Shown here: positions 25,547 through 52,582 of the stretch, in pieces
Position numbering within the stretch: the stretch's first letter is position 1
Layout of the letters: the number at the start of each line of letters is the position of its first letter
Assembly (NCBI RefSeq): GCF_000376385.1
Contig: NZ_AQWN01000005.1
Span: forward strand, 186,001-250,000
DNA: 64,000 nt
Reading direction: 5' to 3'
From: Desulfurispora thermophila DSM 16022
Lineage (GTDB): Bacteria > Bacillota > Desulfotomaculia > Desulfotomaculales > Desulfurisporaceae
Program-made: the position numbers and the translations under genes
Notes under the pieces: generated by a model
Told to the model about the DNA's origin: nothing
The model's database searches: none
Seen by the model: the letters and a program-made list of their open reading frames with translations, nothing else

Positions 25547-25641
25547 AACCTGTAACGACAAAGGCAAACCTGTCGAAAGGCAGGGACGCAAAGCCACGGG
25601 CCTAAGTCCGCATTGCGGATATGGTAGCCGGGTTGCCGGTA
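25547..25641 (+). promoter_or_regulatory. cyclic di-GMP-I riboswitch (GEMM-I aptamer)
   Basis: The conserved GEMM-I core is readable in order: AGGCAAACC, a GAAA tetraloop capping P2, GGGACGCAAAGCCACGGGCC then TAAG, a variable P3 stem GTCCGCATTGCGGAT, and ATGGTAGCCGGGTTGCCGG (tetraloop-receptor side). P1 forms between about 25547-25555 and 25632-25640. It senses the second messenger c-di-GMP. It is followed by an intrinsic terminator (25677-25708), giving a transcriptional switch for the CBS/HD gene downstream. Confidence 0.9.
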
Positions 25642-44755: not shown

Positions 44756-44798
44756 TCCATCCTAACCGAAAGTAAAAATCCTGTAGCGAAAGGAGGTA

Positions 44799-44843
44799 GC
44801 ACCGTTTCCTCCCCGTGGCTAAAGCCAGGGGTCTCCACGGTGC
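44799..44843. repeat. solo IS200/IS605-type end hairpin between a Shine-Dalgarno and its gene
   Basis: A hairpin of CCCC-GTGGCTAAAGCCA-GGGG (44811-44831) is enclosed by GCACCGT/ACGGTGC (44799-44843). The inner 21 bp are identical to the left end of the IsrB transposon at 48209-48229. AAAGGAGGT (44789-44797) lies before it and the pilin ATG (44855) after it. No transposase or IsrB gene is attached. Confidence 0.8.
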
Positions 44844-44854
44844 GATTGGTGCTG

Positions 44855-45214
44855 ATGAAAAAGGTGCTGATGAAAAAGGCGCAGAATGTTTGGACAGGTA
44901 CCGGTGTAATGCTGGGAACCGCGCTGGCGGCCAATGCGGCCTGGGCCGGGCCGATAGCGGAAAAAAGCGCGGACGACGTATCAAATAAGGCGGTACAGGT
45001 GATCCAGAACATAGCCGGTCCCCTGGGTAGCGCCGTAATTTTCGGCTCAGTGCTCATTGCGGCCATAAAAATCATTGCCAGCTCTGGGAATCCGGTGAAG
45101 CGGGCGGAAGCCCTGGGCCAGATTCCGTACATCCTGATTGGCGGCTGCATCCTGGGCGGCGCAATGCTCTTGGCCGGATTTATCATCGGCACTGGGAAAC
45201 AGTTGGGGTCGTAG
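44855..45214 (+). CDS. VirB2-like pilin subunit
   Basis: About 119 residues. A signal peptide (WTGTGVMLGTALAANAAWAG) is followed by two hydrophobic segments (GPLGSAVIFGSVLIAAIKII and GGCILGGAMLLAGFIIG), the layout of VirB2/TrbC-type pilins. The start region has a tandem duplication of GGTGCTGATGAAAAA (44850-44879), which gives two candidate ATG starts (44855, 44870). The hairpin upstream lies between its ribosome site and ATG. Confidence 0.7.
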   Translation: MKKVLMKKAQNVWTGTGVMLGTALAANAAWAGPIAEKSADDVSNKAVQVIQNIAGPLGSAVIFGSVLIAAIKIIASSGNPVKRAEALGQIPYILIGGCILGGAMLLAGFIIGTGKQLGS

Positions 45215-46401: not shown

Positions 46402-48264
46402 GTGAACCTGTTTCGCAGGAAGAAGGCCCCGGAGGATCCGGGGCACCCTGACATTCCATACGACTTCCCGGTGACTGCACTGGCTGAACCCGATGCCATG
46501 TGTGTGTATCCAGAGCACATACGCCTGCATAACCACTATGTGCGGGTGTATGTGGTGGAGAACATTCCCCGCATGGTCTGGCTGGGGTGGATAGAGCAAC
46601 TGGCCATCGGCGGTGTGGTAGTGGCTTCCTACCTGGAACCGCTGCCGGACCGGGAAGTGATCTCCCGGCTCACGAAGCGTGAAACCCAGGCTGCCAGCCA
46701 GCTCATCCTGGCCCAGAATCGCGGCCACATAGCCCGCATACCAGAATACGAACAGGCCGTGGCCGAACTGCGCGCCCTGCGCACGGCGGTGCAGGTGGAG
46801 CAGGAAGCCGTTTTCAGCGCAGGCCATGTGGTAGCAGTGTACGGGAAGGATCCTGAAGACCTGGACCAGCGCTGCTCCTATGTGCAGGACGTAGCAGCGC
46901 GGGCCGGTATCTTTTTACGCACGGCTACCTGGGAGCAGGCCGGAGCTTTCCGCGCCTGTCTGCCGCTGGCTATCCCGCCCCCGGTTCCGCTGCGCACCCT
47001 GACCAGCGGTGCGGCCAGCACCTGTCTGCCCGTGGTATGGGCCGGTGAAATGCATGGCAGCGGAATACTGCTGGGGCGAAACATCAGCACCGGTGCGCCG
47101 GTGCTTCTGAACCGGTTTTTCCGGCGCTCCACAGGCGCGGAAAAGCCGAACCCGCATATGTTTGTGTCAGGTGCACCGGGCGGTGGAAAGTCTGTCACCG
47201 TACGTCTTCTCACCCTGCTGGAAGCCGAGCAGGGGGTGAAAGCGTTCATTATCGATCCGGAGAACGAGTATGTGGAATTTGTGCGCGCCCTGGGTGGCCA
47301 GTCCATCTTCCTCTCTCCCGGCCAGTCGTCCGGTATGAACCTGCTGGATGTGGGAATCGAGGGGGGTGGCCGGGTGGGTATCATATCGAAAGTGGCCGAT
47401 GTTGCGGCCTGGCTTTCGGCCGTATATGCTCACGCCGGCGGCCAGGGTCTGGATATGGCTGCCCAGGCCGCTATCGAAGAGGCGCTGCGGGACACCTACA
47501 CCGCCGCCGGTATCACCGAAGACCCGGCCACCATGGTGGGGCCGGGGGGTATATACAAACCCATGCCTACACTGTCAGACTTCGCAAAACGGTTGGCCAA
47601 GCTCCCTGCCGGGCGGGATGTGGCGCAGGCTATGACACCACTGCTGCGGGGTGGCAGCATGGGATATTTTGATTGTCCCACCACCGTCCATCTGGCTGAC
47701 ACTCCAGTGATCGGTGTACATCTGAAAGCACTTTCAGGTGACTTTCCGCGTCTGGTGGCCATGTTTGCCCTGCTCTCCTGGGCGCTTGGGGGTTTTGCGC
47801 TGCGGGGTAGCGATGCGGTGAAGAAAAGCGTGGTGGTGGACGAGGCCTGGATGTTCTTGCGGTACCCGGCAGTGGCGCAGCACCTGGAAGCGCTGGCCCG
47901 CCGGGGCAGAAAACACGGTTGCGCTCTCACCATTGCCACACAACGTTTCGAGGAATTCGCTGCCAGCCCGGAAGGGCGGGCAGTGATCGAAACATGCCCC
48001 ATCCGTCTCACACTCCGCCAGGAAGACCATGCCGCCCAGGCCGCGGTAGACTATTTCCACCTTTCCGGTGGGTGCCGGGACTTTCTGACCACCGCCCAGG
48101 CCGGCCAGGGTATTCTGGTGGTAGACGGCCGGGTGTCGGCAGTGCAGGTGGAACCGGCCCCGTTTGAATGGGACATAGTGGGCACAAAGGTGGTGGAACG
48201 GTCAACAACCCCGTGGCTAAAGCCAGGGGCTTGCAATGGCGGTAGCAACGCAAGTGTTGACTAG
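46402..48264 (+). CDS. VirB4-like type IV secretion ATPase, C-terminus rewritten by a transposon
   Basis: 620 residues. Walker A is VSGAPGGGKSVTV and Walker B SVVVDEAWMFL; the N-terminal VirB4 region precedes. It powers pilus assembly and substrate transport at the membrane. The last ~18 codons (from 48209) lie inside the left end of the IsrB transposon, so the native C-terminus has been replaced; function may survive because this region is variable. A GTG start after GGAGGATG. Confidence 0.9.
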   Translation: MNLFRRKKAPEDPGHPDIPYDFPVTALAEPDAMCVYPEHIRLHNHYVRVYVVENIPRMVWLGWIEQLAIGGVVVASYLEPLPDREVISRLTKRETQAASQLILAQNRGHIARIPEYEQAVAELRALRTAVQVEQEAVFSAGHVVAVYGKDPEDLDQRCSYVQDVAARAGIFLRTATWEQAGAFRACLPLAIPPPVPLRTLTSGAASTCLPVVWAGEMHGSGILLGRNISTGAPVLLNRFFRRSTGAEKPNPHMFVSGAPGGGKSVTVRLLTLLEAEQGVKAFIIDPENEYVEFVRALGGQSIFLSPGQSSGMNLLDVGIEGGGRVGIISKVADVAAWLSAVYAHAGGQGLDMAAQAAIEEALRDTYTAAGITEDPATMVGPGGIYKPMPTLSDFAKRLAKLPAGRDVAQAMTPLLRGGSMGYFDCPTTVHLADTPVIGVHLKALSGDFPRLVAMFALLSWALGGFALRGSDAVKKSVVVDEAWMFLRYPAVAQHLEALARRGRKHGCALTIATQRFEEFAASPEGRAVIETCPIRLTLRQEDHAAQAAVDYFHLSGGCRDFLTTAQAGQGILVVDGRVSAVQVEPAPFEWDIVGTKVVERSTTPWLKPGACNGGSNASVD

Positions 48265-48419
48265 ACCATACGCTCCGGCGGGCTACAAGTACCCTGGGAT
48301 GCACGCCCTAGTTCCAGGCTCTACGGCAGAACCGCTGAATGCCATGTTGAGCAATCAACTAAGCCTGCCGGGCAAGGTCGAAGGGCACTAAACTCCTGTC
48401 GGAAGGAGAACGAATACCG
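48209..48419 (+). ncRNA. putative omega RNA of the IsrB element
   Basis: About 190 bp without a frame between the left-end hairpin and the isrB start, the usual place of the IscB/IsrB guide RNA (HEARO/omega RNA). Several G/C-rich pairing segments are visible (GCCTGCCGGGC, CTCCTGTCGGAAGGAG). In this family the guide is the sequence just outside the left end, here the 3' end of virB4 at about 48190-48208. Confidence 0.6.
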
Positions 48420-49385
48420 TTGAAAATTCCAGTCGTACATCTTGATGGGACACCGCTCATGCCCTGTTCACCGGCTAAAGCCCGGAAACTGCTCAGGGCA
48501 GGCGCCGCACAAAAGAAATGGACCAGGGCCGGGGTGTTTTACATTCAACTAACTACCCCGACTGGAAAAAACACACAACCATTAATAATGGGCATTGACC
48601 CTGGAGCCAAATACGACGGAATATGCATTGCCAGCAGACGGCAGATGCAGATATCGGGAATGCTTGTAGTAAAAAACCGCATAGCCAAAAAGATGGAACA
48701 ACGCAGGAATATGCGCAGAGCCCGGAGATGGCGAAATTGTCGGAGGCGACCAGAGCGATTTAATAACAGGACAAGGCCTGAAGGGTGGCTGCCGCCGTCA
48801 ATCAAAGCCAGAGTAGATACCCGCATCGCACTTATCGACAGCCTGCTATCAATCTACCCGGTAACAGAATTTGCAGTAGAAGACACCAGGATTGACGGCA
48901 ATAAACTCAAAAACAAAGACGGCAGGCAATACCTGACCTGGGTCATGACCGGCAAAACCAGGCTGTACAACCACTTAAAAGAAAAAGGTGGACTGACCCT
49001 GTACTTGCCGGAGCAAACAGTCCGGGCACGGGAAGTGTGCGGCCTTATCAAAACACCCGGGAAAGGCGAGCTGGTATTTACCTCGCAGGCAGTTGACGCC
49101 CTGGCTTTGTGCTGGCTAAAAGCAGGGACAGAAAACTTGTCTGTAATCAGCTTTATGGCCTGGCGCAGGCCGGAAATATCCAGGAGACAACTGCACCGGT
49201 TTGAGCCGGAGAAGGGTGGAAAAAGAAAGCCCTACGGTGGCAGTCGGGTTCTGGGTATACGAAAGAACACAGTTGTCTGGTATAGAGGAAAACTTTACCG
49301 GACAGGAGGTACCACCAAAGGCAGATTGAGCCTTCACTCTTACATAGATCGTAAAAAGCTACTCACCCCTAAGGGGCAGTTGTAC
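48209..49385 (+). mobile_element. IsrB-type (IscB-like) transposon of the IS200/IS605 group
   Basis: Left end: 21-bp hairpin CCCC...GGGG at 48209-48229, same as the solo end at 44811. Right end: CCCCTAAGGGG palindrome at 49366-49376, inside the fused frame. It holds no transposase and only the RuvC protein gene and its RNA region, as usual for non-autonomous IscB/IsrB units. Inserted between virB4 and a radical SAM gene. The exact right boundary is inferred. Confidence 0.7.
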
Positions 49386-50192
49386 AAATCTATAGGTGAT
49401 GATGATACAGTATATTTTGATTGTATGCCGGAAGTGGCGCGAAAAACATTAATCAACTCCACAAAAGTAGAATATTGTACCTACGCTCTAAATCACATTG
49501 AAGGCTGCGCTCATGGCTGCAAATTCCCCTGCTATGCTATGATGATGGCCAAGAGGTTTGGCAAAATCAAAACATACGAAGACTGGCTGCGTCCCAAGAA
49601 GATAAGCAATATATTTGCCATATTAGAAAAAGAGATTGAAAAATACGCAGGCAAAGTTAAATGCGTCCACCTTTCGTTTATGACTGACCCGTTCATGTAC
49701 AAGCACCCCATGCTTAACAGGTATTCCCTGAACGTAATTTACCGTCTCAACAAGCACGGAATATATGTCACAACACTGACCAAGGGCATATGTCCTAAAG
49801 AATTGGCAGACACAAAATATTTTGATACCAGAAACGAATACGGAATAACCCTGGTTTCGCTCGATGAAAAATTTCGGAAAGAATTTGAACCATTTGCTGC
49901 TCCCTACAAAGAGAGGATCGCAGCGCTTAAATACCTGCATGACTGCGGCTGCAAAACATGGGTGAGCATGGAGCCATATCCTACCCCAAATTTAATCGCT
50001 CAGGACATAAGGTTGATCTTGCAGGAAATAGCATTTGTAGACAAAATTGTTTTTGGTAAACTGAACTACAATGTAAATTCTGAGAAATTCCAGAACAACA
50101 CTGACTTCTACCAAGAGCAGGCAGAAGTTGTGATCAACTTTTGCGAACAGAACGGGATTGAGTATCACATCAAAGAGGGTACAATATGTTAG
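48420..50192 (+). CDS. IsrB-like RuvC nuclease fused in frame to a radical SAM protein
   Basis: 590 residues. Residues 1-~320 are IsrB-like: PLMP motif (TPLMPCSPAKARKLLR), RuvC-I GIDPGAK (Asp60), Arg-rich bridge helix (~90-112), RuvC-II FAVEDTRID (Glu154), no HNH insertion, RuvC-III SQAVDALAL (Asp226), and a C-terminal PYGGSRVLG...GRLSLH region. Residues ~336-590 are an SPL-like radical SAM protein with CAHGCKFPC (a CxxxCxxxC spacing, not the usual CxxxCxxC) followed by TDPFMYKH and WVSMEPYPTP. The junction at about 316-335 falls at the transposon's right end. Met336 (49425) could start the radical SAM part alone, but no ribosome site is seen there. Confidence 0.85.
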   Translation: MKIPVVHLDGTPLMPCSPAKARKLLRAGAAQKKWTRAGVFYIQLTTPTGKNTQPLIMGIDPGAKYDGICIASRRQMQISGMLVVKNRIAKKMEQRRNMRRARRWRNCRRRPERFNNRTRPEGWLPPSIKARVDTRIALIDSLLSIYPVTEFAVEDTRIDGNKLKNKDGRQYLTWVMTGKTRLYNHLKEKGGLTLYLPEQTVRAREVCGLIKTPGKGELVFTSQAVDALALCWLKAGTENLSVISFMAWRRPEISRRQLHRFEPEKGGKRKPYGGSRVLGIRKNTVVWYRGKLYRTGGTTKGRLSLHSYIDRKKLLTPKGQLYKSIGDDDTVYFDCMPEVARKTLINSTKVEYCTYALNHIEGCAHGCKFPCYAMMMAKRFGKIKTYEDWLRPKKISNIFAILEKEIEKYAGKVKCVHLSFMTDPFMYKHPMLNRYSLNVIYRLNKHGIYVTTLTKGICPKELADTKYFDTRNEYGITLVSLDEKFRKEFEPFAAPYKERIAALKYLHDCGCKTWVSMEPYPTPNLIAQDIRLILQEIAFVDKIVFGKLNYNVNSEKFQNNTDFYQEQAEVVINFCEQNGIEYHIKEGTIC

Positions 50193-50252: not shown

Positions 50253-50576
50253 GTGGCAATGCAAGCAGAGGAAAGAGTGAACCTGGATGCCATATGCCTT
50301 GCCGCCGTAAAGAGATGGGGGCCGGCGCAACTCATTATCCTGCTGGAAGAGTTGGCCGAACTGCAGCAGTCGCTGGTGAAATATTTGCGCTACGGCAACC
50401 AGTACCTGGATGACATAGCGGAAGAAGTAGCAGATGTGCAAATCATGCTTCACCAGTTAACACTCATGCTGAACCTGTCTGACCGCATTTCTGAAATGCG
50501 TGAAGAAAAACTGAAGAAGCTGAAAGCCATTCTAGACAATGATCACGATAGCACTATGGGTGGTATTCATGGTTAA
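50253..50576 (+). CDS. MazG-like NTP pyrophosphohydrolase
   Basis: About 107 residues. EELAELQQSLVKYLRYG and EEVADVQIMLHQL give the ExxE...ExxD metal-binding pattern of all-alpha NTP pyrophosphohydrolases. Such enzymes clean dNTP pools and are common in phages and ICEs. GTG start at 50253 with GGGGGTGAG upstream. Its 3' end overlaps the next gene by 8 bp. Confidence 0.8.
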   Translation: MAMQAEERVNLDAICLAAVKRWGPAQLIILLEELAELQQSLVKYLRYGNQYLDDIAEEVADVQIMLHQLTLMLNLSDRISEMREEKLKKLKAILDNDHDSTMGGIHG

Positions 50577-51439: not shown

Positions 51440-52582
51440 AACAAGTAGAAGGTGTTGCAGGGCGTGATACCCTAGAGTATGTCTCCGACACAAGCGATGA
51501 GCGGGAAGCGTAATCCCTACACCTGAGTCAAAGCGATGAGCAAGACTCATTCCGCGAAGCGATGAGCAAGCGGAACGCCTGAAAGTAGGCGCAAAGAGAG
51601 GATGTAGGACGTAATACCCTGGGAGGCATATTCGACATAAGCGATGAGCGGGAAGCGTTGCTCAGCCTGCGACAGCCTGGACCAAGAGCGATGAGCGCGG
51701 TCCTTCCTCGCGAAGCGATGAGCAAGTGGGGCACCCTGGACCCGGGTGTTAGAAGCTGCGGAAAGGCTTTTGCAGAATGCGGGCACGATACCCTAGGACG
51801 CAAGTCCGACACAGGCGTTGAGCGGGAAGTGTAATAATTAAATATCCGCAACTGCAAAAAAACCGGTGGGTGAAAAAGGTTTCGTTCCTGCCGCAGCGAG
51901 AAAATGGGGCAGTGCATATTCGAAGCGTTGAGCAAGGATGTGCCGGTCTGGCCGACCAAACAAAGCCCGCTGACCCTTAGAAAAGCGTGGGCAGGCCGGA
52001 GGCAGCCTGCGGGAGACACGCGGTCAGTGTGAAACGAGAACGGCCCGAAGCCGGTACAAATCAGGTGCGGCAGGCCTGGTACCGGCCGACTCGAATAGCT
52101 GCCGTACCCCCGATAGGGTTGCAAGCTTTGGTCGTCAACATTGGCGACCCACAAGGCAGGTGGGGCTTGCAAAACTGGGGGGCTCCCACAGAGAGGGGAG
52201 TACTGCCTGTCACACGTTCGGGGCTCCCCGGCCCAGCAGCAGAAAGGGGAGGCTGCTCCACCCACCAGAGCAGTCTATCAGCAGGGTGACCTGCTGAAGG
52301 AGAAAGAAAGCCCCTTTTGCGGGGCGAGAAAACTAATGAAAAAACCCTTCTAAACAGGGTGGAAATCAATCAAGTATAAACATTCGTCCCATAGGGGATG
52401 GATGGAAAACCCGAACGCACAACTCCCTAAAATGGGATAAAACAACAAAAACAGAAAAGTGCAGGCCTCCGGCAATCAGCCGGTTAATCAGGTGTGCACC
52501 GAGAAAGAAACAAAGAGCATTCGCTAAGAGTATTCTGGAAAAGACAGGAATAACTCTTAGTAATGCTCTTTTGCGCTTTTTT
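51440..52582 (+). ncRNA. candidate large structured RNA with repeated loop motif
   Basis: No gene is supported from 51,313 to 52,658. Eight copies of GCGATGAGC/GCGTTGAGC (51494, 51533, 51559, 51641, 51688, 51715, 51815, 51925) each sit in a hairpin loop whose stem differs: TGAGTC/GACTCA, TTCCGC/GCGGAA, GGACC/GGTCC, CCTCGC/GTGGGG, CATATTC/GGATGTG and others. A ~57-nt unit (ATACCCTxGG...CGACA...GCGGGAAG) repeats at 51461, 51607 and 51781. Downstream lie TTGCAAGC/GCTTGCAA closing a branched junction, CCGGTAC/GTACCGG, and a GTGA-capped CAGCAGG/CCTGCTG hairpin, ending in a strong terminator. Frames seen in it are artefacts of the repeats. The 5' end is not known. Confidence 0.65.
52513..52582 (+). 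terminator. long terminator closing the structured RNA region
   Basis: AGAGCATT/AATGCTCT, CTAAGAG/CTCTTAG and TATTC/GAATA stack into one hairpin, followed by T-rich sequence. Confidence 0.75.

What the first reader, a model, noticed from the sequence alone, without database searches (positions are those of the whole stretch)
48420..50192. IsrB-type RuvC nuclease fused in frame to a radical SAM protein
The RNA-guided nuclease part (PLMP, RuvC-I/II/III all with acidic residues, no HNH) runs straight into a complete SPL-like radical SAM domain. The join coincides with the transposon's right-end palindrome CCCCTAAGGGG, so it most likely arose by insertion before a radical SAM gene whose own start was lost or bypassed. 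If translated as one chain, it would couple a guided DNA-binding/nicking protein to a radical enzyme; SPL relatives act on DNA (spore photoproduct lyase). The Cys spacing CxxxCxxxC is also unusual.
Basis: partly seen in the sequence, partly recalled or inferred. Interest (0 to 1): 0.8.

Follow-up and report, generated by a model that had tools for sequence, protein, structure and literature searches.

The report
Broken mobile element inside defence-like gene
The apparent IsrB-radical SAM fusion is a truncated IsrB mobile element stuck in a methyltransferase-like/radical SAM gene, so the two halves meet in frame by accident and the join is not a new kind of enzyme.

Summary
The 590-codon ORF is real in the assembly and both halves are correctly named. 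It is best read as an insertion-deletion relic. The genome holds a second IsrB copy, 1144/1145 bp identical, which continues into a normal IsrB C-terminus and right end. The window's copy stops after residue 307. What follows is not a radical SAM gene with a lost start: it is the tail of TcmP (three-Cys-motif partner) plus the radical SAM domain of a one-chain TcmP-rSAM protein, entering exactly at the break. The N-terminal part of that TcmP lies on another contig, C13, cut off by the same IsrB left end. Two relatives carry, in one unbroken order, VirB4, the C13 genes, then the gene after the rSAM. So the window lacks about 41 kb, collapsed at the IsrB repeat. The truncated IsrB lacks the residues matching DtIsrB R323, Q326 and strand beta7, each needed for activity. 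None of 114 rSAM loci carries IsrB; 102 have TcmP adjacent or fused. CxxxCxxxC is the family norm, and CCCCTAAGGGG is not the transposon end. A conserved, unclassified ~0.9-kb candidate structured RNA at 51440-52350 looks more interesting.

The parts
48200..49341 (+). IsrB element copy, left end to break point; identical to the copy on contig C13 (the one mismatch of the BLAST alignment lies in the left flank)
   Evidence: BLASTN 1144/1145 over window 48197-49341; divergence exactly after 49341
48201..48393 (+). HEARO / omega RNA of the IsrB element
   Evidence: Rfam RF02033, full model 1-211, 75.9 bits, E 1.2e-15, gathering score 83
48209..48229 (+). CCCCGTGGCTAAAGCCAGGGG hairpin, the element's real terminal palindrome; a second one lies beyond the intact copy's stop at C13:214-234
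48420..49340 (+). IsrB coding part, residues 1-307, truncated in the TAM-interacting domain
   Evidence: PF14239 5e-49; 8dmb 5e-57; intact copy is 342 codons
49341..49424 (+). tail of TcmP / linker of a one-chain TcmP-rSAM protein (YIDRKKLLTPKGQLYKSIGDDDTVYFDC)
   Evidence: own-genome search with L053: its residues 352-641 match from C5:235341 = window 49341; alignment
49366..49376 (+).
   Evidence: sequence; position against the break
49425..50192 (+). three-Cys-motif (CxxxCxxxC) SPL-like radical SAM domain
   Evidence: PF04055; 48-54% identity to four standalone relatives; Foldseek to spore photoproduct lyase E 1.7e-7
50253..50576 (+). MazG-like gene directly after the rSAM; with TcmP-IsrB-rSAM it seems to be cargo not seen in the two colinear relatives
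   Evidence: phrog_2245 1.6e-22; no match to it in G095 or G099 regions
46402..48200 (+). VirB4-like conjugation ATPase; real left neighbour of the OTHER (intact) IsrB copy, whose insertion sits at the VirB4 stop
   Evidence: NF045971 4.7e-49, below its cut-off; relatives end at the matching residue; VirB4 is followed by the C13 VirB6-like gene in 5 of 6 relatives

Best explanation
The ORF is a relic. A conjugative element carried a one-chain TcmP-rSAM gene (methyltransferase-like TcmP plus a CxxxCxxxC radical SAM domain, a candidate phage-defence pair). An IsrB element inserted into the TcmP part at about codon 161. Later the right end of the element (35 IsrB codons plus its terminal hairpin) and about 187 codons of TcmP were lost, joining IsrB codon 307 to the TcmP tail. 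The frame is kept by chance (1 in 3). A second, intact IsrB copy sits at the end of VirB4 about 41 kb upstream. The assembly joined the left flank of the intact copy to the right flank of the truncated one, so the window shows VirB4-IsrB-rSAM. If translated, the chain should be a nicking-dead IsrB stub followed by an rSAM domain without its TcmP partner.
For: Shown: the two IsrB copies share 1144/1145 bp and diverge at window 49341, which is also the end of contig C13; C13's first 95 bases equal its last 95. C13 starts with the normal IsrB C-terminus and ends with TcmP residues up to the IsrB left end (TIGR04474 5e-24). That is the only TcmP in the genome. A natural one-chain TcmP-rSAM (L053) matches the genome only at its residues 18-164 (C13, ending at the IsrB left end) and 352-641 (C5, starting at the break); E limit 10. 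G095 and G099 run VirB4 - C13 genes in order - W_50539. VirB4 is followed by VirB6 in 5 of 6 relatives. Some joinings of the flanks of the intact copy restore a VirB4 stop where relatives stop. rSAM loci: TcmP adjacent 94, fused 8, none 11, no flank 1, IsrB 0, of 114. Loss of the R323/Q326/beta7 equivalents. AlphaFold: the 590-aa chain gives pTM 0.49 with residues 249-334 below pLDDT 50; the natural TcmP-rSAM chain L051 gives pTM 0.88.
Against: No reads were available: neither the IsrB|TcmP-tail join nor the 41-kb collapse was checked by coverage. Both halves are free of stops and frameshifts, as a used protein would be; but the IsrB copies are so alike that there has been little time for decay. 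The AlphaFold alignments are shallow (26-27 rows), and a two-module chain is expected to have lower pTM. Inferred, not shown: the order insertion-then-deletion, loss of nicking activity, and that the ancestor was one chain rather than two genes (the tail aligns best with one-chain proteins, but tails of non-fused TcmP look similar by eye).
Confidence: 0.9

Rival explanations
1. The chain is translated and works as a guided enzyme: IsrB with its omega RNA brings the radical SAM domain to chosen DNA.
For: Open frame across the join; omega RNA present; PLMP and RuvC motifs intact; the rSAM half resembles spore photoproduct lyase and keeps its conserved residues.
Against: Residues equivalent to DtIsrB R323 and Q326, and strand beta7, each shown to be needed for cleavage or nicking (PMC9581776, passages), are gone. 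No other such fusion in 114 rSAM loci or 28 other IsrB loci. The join falls inside the TcmP gene, not at a domain border.
Confidence: 0.03
2. The IsrB-to-rSAM junction is itself an assembly chimaera and no such ORF exists in the cell.
For: The junction coincides with a contig end, a 95-bp terminal overlap and a 1.1-kb repeat.
Against: A contig end at that very base implies that the assembler saw two continuations there, one being the rSAM side. The TcmP halves on either side of an IsrB copy also call for a copy joined to the rSAM side.
Confidence: 0.06
3. The 41-kb segment was really excised by recombination between the two IsrB copies (deleted chromosome plus a circle), so VirB4-IsrB-rSAM is a true arrangement in part of the culture. 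This concerns the left flank only and is compatible with the relic reading of the join.
For: C13 ends overlap, as those of a circle would; two direct IsrB repeats 41 kb apart invite recombination.
Against: The same pattern arises from a repeat collapse without any biology. The ancestral order in two relatives is the undeleted one.
Confidence: 0.15
4. The rSAM domain is still made on its own from an internal start (ATG 49425, Met336, or TTG 49380), as an orphan enzyme.
For: Standalone rSAM relatives begin within a few residues of Met336.
Against: No good Shine-Dalgarno sequence precedes ATG 49425 (read in the sequence); its TcmP partner is broken.
Confidence: 0.2

Closest known systems
DtIsrB (Desulfovirgula thermocuniculi IsrB, PDB 8dmb)
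   Same: PLMP domain, RuvC, bridge helix, no HNH, HEARO-type omega RNA upstream; detectable homology over residues 2-294 (2-320 for the intact copy)
   Different: The window copy lacks everything after residue 307: TAM-reading Arg/Gln and strand beta7; the intact sister copy on C13 carries the matching Arg314/Gln317
TcmP (TIGR04474) with its three-Cys-motif radical SAM partner; PADLOC candidates PDC-M30 and PDC-M41
   Same: Same gene order (TcmP then rSAM), same C-HGC-PC motif, in part a single chain; weak PADLOC matches for both genes
   Different: Here TcmP is split by IsrB and about 187 codons are missing
Spore photoproduct lyase (PDB 4fhg and others)
   Same: Nearest solved radical SAM fold by Foldseek (TM-score about 0.55 on the target)
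   Different: Only 14% identity; Cys spacing CxxxCxxxC; partner TcmP; no NCBIfam rSAM cut-off reached

Membership tests
IsrB | PLMP domain and RuvC I-III acidic residues without HNH | tested here: met
   PF14239 and 8dmb matches; motifs read in the sequence; no HNH model matched
IsrB | HEARO/omega RNA directly upstream | tested here: met
   RF02033 full length, E 1.2e-15, though below the gathering score
IsrB | complete TAM-interacting domain with Arg323/Gln326 equivalents and strand beta7 | tested here: not met
   ends at residue 307, about DtIsrB 316; the intact copy aligns R314 and Q317 to R323 and Q326
IsrB | omega RNA-guided nicking activity | not testable with these tools
   needs biochemistry
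TcmP / three-Cys rSAM pair | CxxxCxxxC motif in the rSAM | tested here: met
   window has CAHGCKFPC; 112 of 114 loci have the motif, with seed bias
TcmP / three-Cys rSAM pair | TcmP directly upstream or fused | tested here: met
   TcmP tail in the window and TcmP N-part on C13; both are remnants of a broken gene
TcmP / three-Cys rSAM pair | anti-phage activity | not tested
   only weak PADLOC candidate matches
Spore photoproduct lyase | CxxxCxxC cluster motif (spacing recalled) | tested here: not met
   spacing is CxxxCxxxC
IsrB-radical SAM fusion as a conserved architecture | same join in other genomes | tested here: not met
   0 of 114 rSAM loci with IsrB, 0 of 28 other IsrB loci with rSAM; junction 32-mer absent from viral contigs

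The most novel reading that the evidence does not exclude
The accidental join is translated as one chain and has gained a use: an IsrB stub that still binds its omega RNA delivers a radical SAM domain to nucleic acid.
Probability: 0.02. Interest if true: 0.75.

Novelty: new member of a known kind. Interest (0 to 1): 0.14.

Why it matters
It removes a tempting but false lead (a guided radical enzyme) and shows that the window is missing about 41 kb of a conjugative element. It gives a case of an IsrB element breaking a candidate defence gene. For other scans it is a warning: an in-frame fusion at the end of a repeated mobile element should first be checked against the other copies in the genome.

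Tried and rejected
Rejected: the fusion as a conserved architecture; the CCCCTAAGGGG palindrome as transposon end; Met336 as a conserved gene start; unusual Cys spacing.

Led nowhere: plasmid collection with the element plus rSAM DNA, no match; junction 32-mer in viral contigs, none; PDB by sequence for the rSAM half, only chance hits; papers with 'three-Cys-motif partner' and 'radical SAM' together, none. 'Three-Cys-motif partner' alone gave three papers; in the two I looked into (passages only) TcmP is named once each, in a table. 'PDC-M30' gave two papers (listing only). 'Phage defence candidate' with PADLOC gave four (listing only), and one search gave only listings. The IsrB structure paper PMC9581776 was read as passages, and the IsrB search as a listing.

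Limits of the counts: one search found 325 relatives and kept the best 80; one search gave 29; the five loci L011-L015 were chosen as the closest of the list. The 28 other IsrB loci are those of the list that were held as loci, not all its matches. Rows dropped: L166 and L188 were left out of the alignment for folding (L166 wrong frame guess; L188 left out by choice). Three of the eight one-chain ORFs (L055, L065, L120) show only part of TcmP. The motif count accepts C...C...C anywhere in the ORF.

Full report
Observation. The ORF 48420-50192 is there: 590 codons from a TTG. Its first part is IsrB: RRXRR 5e-49, and DtIsrB 8dmb 5e-57 over residues 2-294. A HEARO RNA covers 48201-48393. Its last part is a radical SAM domain.

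A second IsrB copy. In the window's own genome (19 contigs, window = C5:186001-250000) the chain has one other strong match, IsrB residues 1-307 at the end of contig C13, and a short match at the start of C13. At the DNA level the copies share 1144 of 1145 bases over window 48197-49341. C13 ends at exactly that last base, and its first 95 bases equal its last 95. From there C13 runs on into a normal IsrB C-terminus (342 codons in all) and a second CCCCGTGGCTAAAGCCAGGGG hairpin. A relative at 67% identity (L160) has the same C-terminus. So the window's copy is the altered one.

What was lost. Using the PLMP prolines to set the numbering (P17 and P20 in PMC9581776, passages), the intact copy's Arg314 and Gln317 align with DtIsrB Arg323 and Gln326. 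These read the TAM, and alanine at either removed cleavage; deletion of strand beta7 (341-353) abolished nicking. The window chain stops being IsrB at residue 307, about DtIsrB 316, and so lacks all three. Loss of activity is an inference by analogy.

What IsrB is joined to. The close rSAM relatives L011-L015 all sit directly after TcmP or a TcmP-like C-terminal ORF. Among 114 loci (80 from genome contigs, 29 viral, these 5) TcmP is adjacent upstream in 94, in the same chain in 8, not found in 11, and 1 has no flank; IsrB is found in none. Three of the one-chain proteins (L051, L053, L055) align with the window from the first 1-3 residues after the IsrB break, and L065 from about residue 14 by phmmer; the multiple alignment shows the shared TcmP tail. 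A search of the own genome with L053 gave only two matches: its residues 18-164 on C13, ending where the IsrB left end begins, and 352-641 from C5:235341, which is window 49341, the first codon after IsrB. Residues 165-351 were not found at E up to 10. The TcmP family model finds one place in the genome, the same N-terminal piece.

Gene order. On C13 the intact IsrB is followed by a VirB6-like gene and the rest of a conjugation system, and the contig ends with TcmP and the IsrB left end (gene names on C13 other than TcmP and the Rpn nuclease are my reading of the translations, not family searches). VirB4 is followed by that VirB6-like gene in 5 of 6 relatives fetched; the sixth contig ends. 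VirB4 of the relatives stops where the window's VirB4 runs into IsrB; some joinings of the two flanks of the intact copy give a VirB4 stop there, but the exact right end is not fixed. In G095 and G099 the order is VirB4, then C13 genes in C13 order, then C13_39019, W_50539; G095 continues with W_52563, W_53100 and W_55850. So 41,375 bases belong between the window's VirB4 and its rSAM, and TcmP-IsrB-rSAM is cargo between C13_39019 and W_50539. Whether the window's order is an assembly collapse or a real deletion in part of the culture cannot be told without reads; collapse is simpler.

Structure. The natural TcmP-rSAM chain L051 gave mean pLDDT 87 and pTM 0.88. Foldseek found methyltransferases of the RlmJ/DUF519 kind and spore photoproduct lyase. 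The 590-residue chain gave pLDDT 74 and pTM 0.49, with 249-334 below 50. Its halves match DtIsrB (6.8e-24) and spore photoproduct lyase (1.7e-7) apart. The alignments were shallow, so this is supporting evidence only.

Mechanism, as inferred. An IsrB element inserted into TcmP, its left end (48200/48201) cutting TcmP after about codon 161. Later its right end and part of TcmP were deleted. In-frame joining needs only a 1-in-3 chance, because each side already carries an open frame. Near identity of the two copies says that this is recent, which explains why nothing has yet decayed. TcmP-rSAM pairs are weak matches to PADLOC phage-defence candidates PDC-M30 and PDC-M41; their function is untested here.

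Verdict. The finding is ordinary in kind: a mobile-element copy broken inside a gene. Its use is as a warning about fusions at repeat ends and as a pointer to a missing 41-kb stretch. A better lead lies 1.2 kb downstream: a 0.9-kb stretch without a convincing gene, with similar sequence in four other genomes of the order and no Rfam match.

Noticed in passing
window 51440-52350 (+), core about 51840-52130: Candidate large structured non-coding RNA of a conjugative element. AGCGATGAGC occurs exactly 6 times at 51493-51723. Fold energy z -5.2 against 20 shuffles; the same stretch in relatives gave z -1.1 (G095) and -2.8 (G099). Homologous DNA (62-65% over 185-248 nt) in G045, G095, G099, G039, no Rfam match. 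13 of 65 predicted pairs have a two-sided change, but the covariation term is +1.8, so covariation is not established. It follows W_50539 in G095 and G099.
   Followed up: partly
window about 48200-49341, against contig C13 (L004-L006): About 41.4 kb of the conjugative element (VirB6-like, topoisomerase-like, VirD4-like, Tad-like genes by my reading) is missing from the window at the IsrB repeat; relatives show the full order.
   Followed up: yes
window 44774-44859: 86 bp identical to the right end of the intact IsrB copy with its flank, without IsrB: a right-end relic in the conjugation operon, just before another gene start.
   Followed up: partly
L004:17013-17104 (C13): A 92-bp piece of the IsrB C-terminal coding region (98.9% identical) abuts a broken Rpn-family nuclease gene, starting at the same CTCTT where the window copy breaks.
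   Followed up: no
L051, L053, L055, L065, L097, L115, L120, L129: TcmP and the three-Cys radical SAM protein occur as a single chain in 8 of 114 loci, four of them (L051, L053, L055, L065) in archaeal records; a possible route to the function of this pair.
   Followed up: partly
window 25553-25640 (+) and 17635-17477 (-): c-di-GMP-I riboswitch (92 bits) and TwoAYGGAY RNA (63 bits).
   Followed up: no
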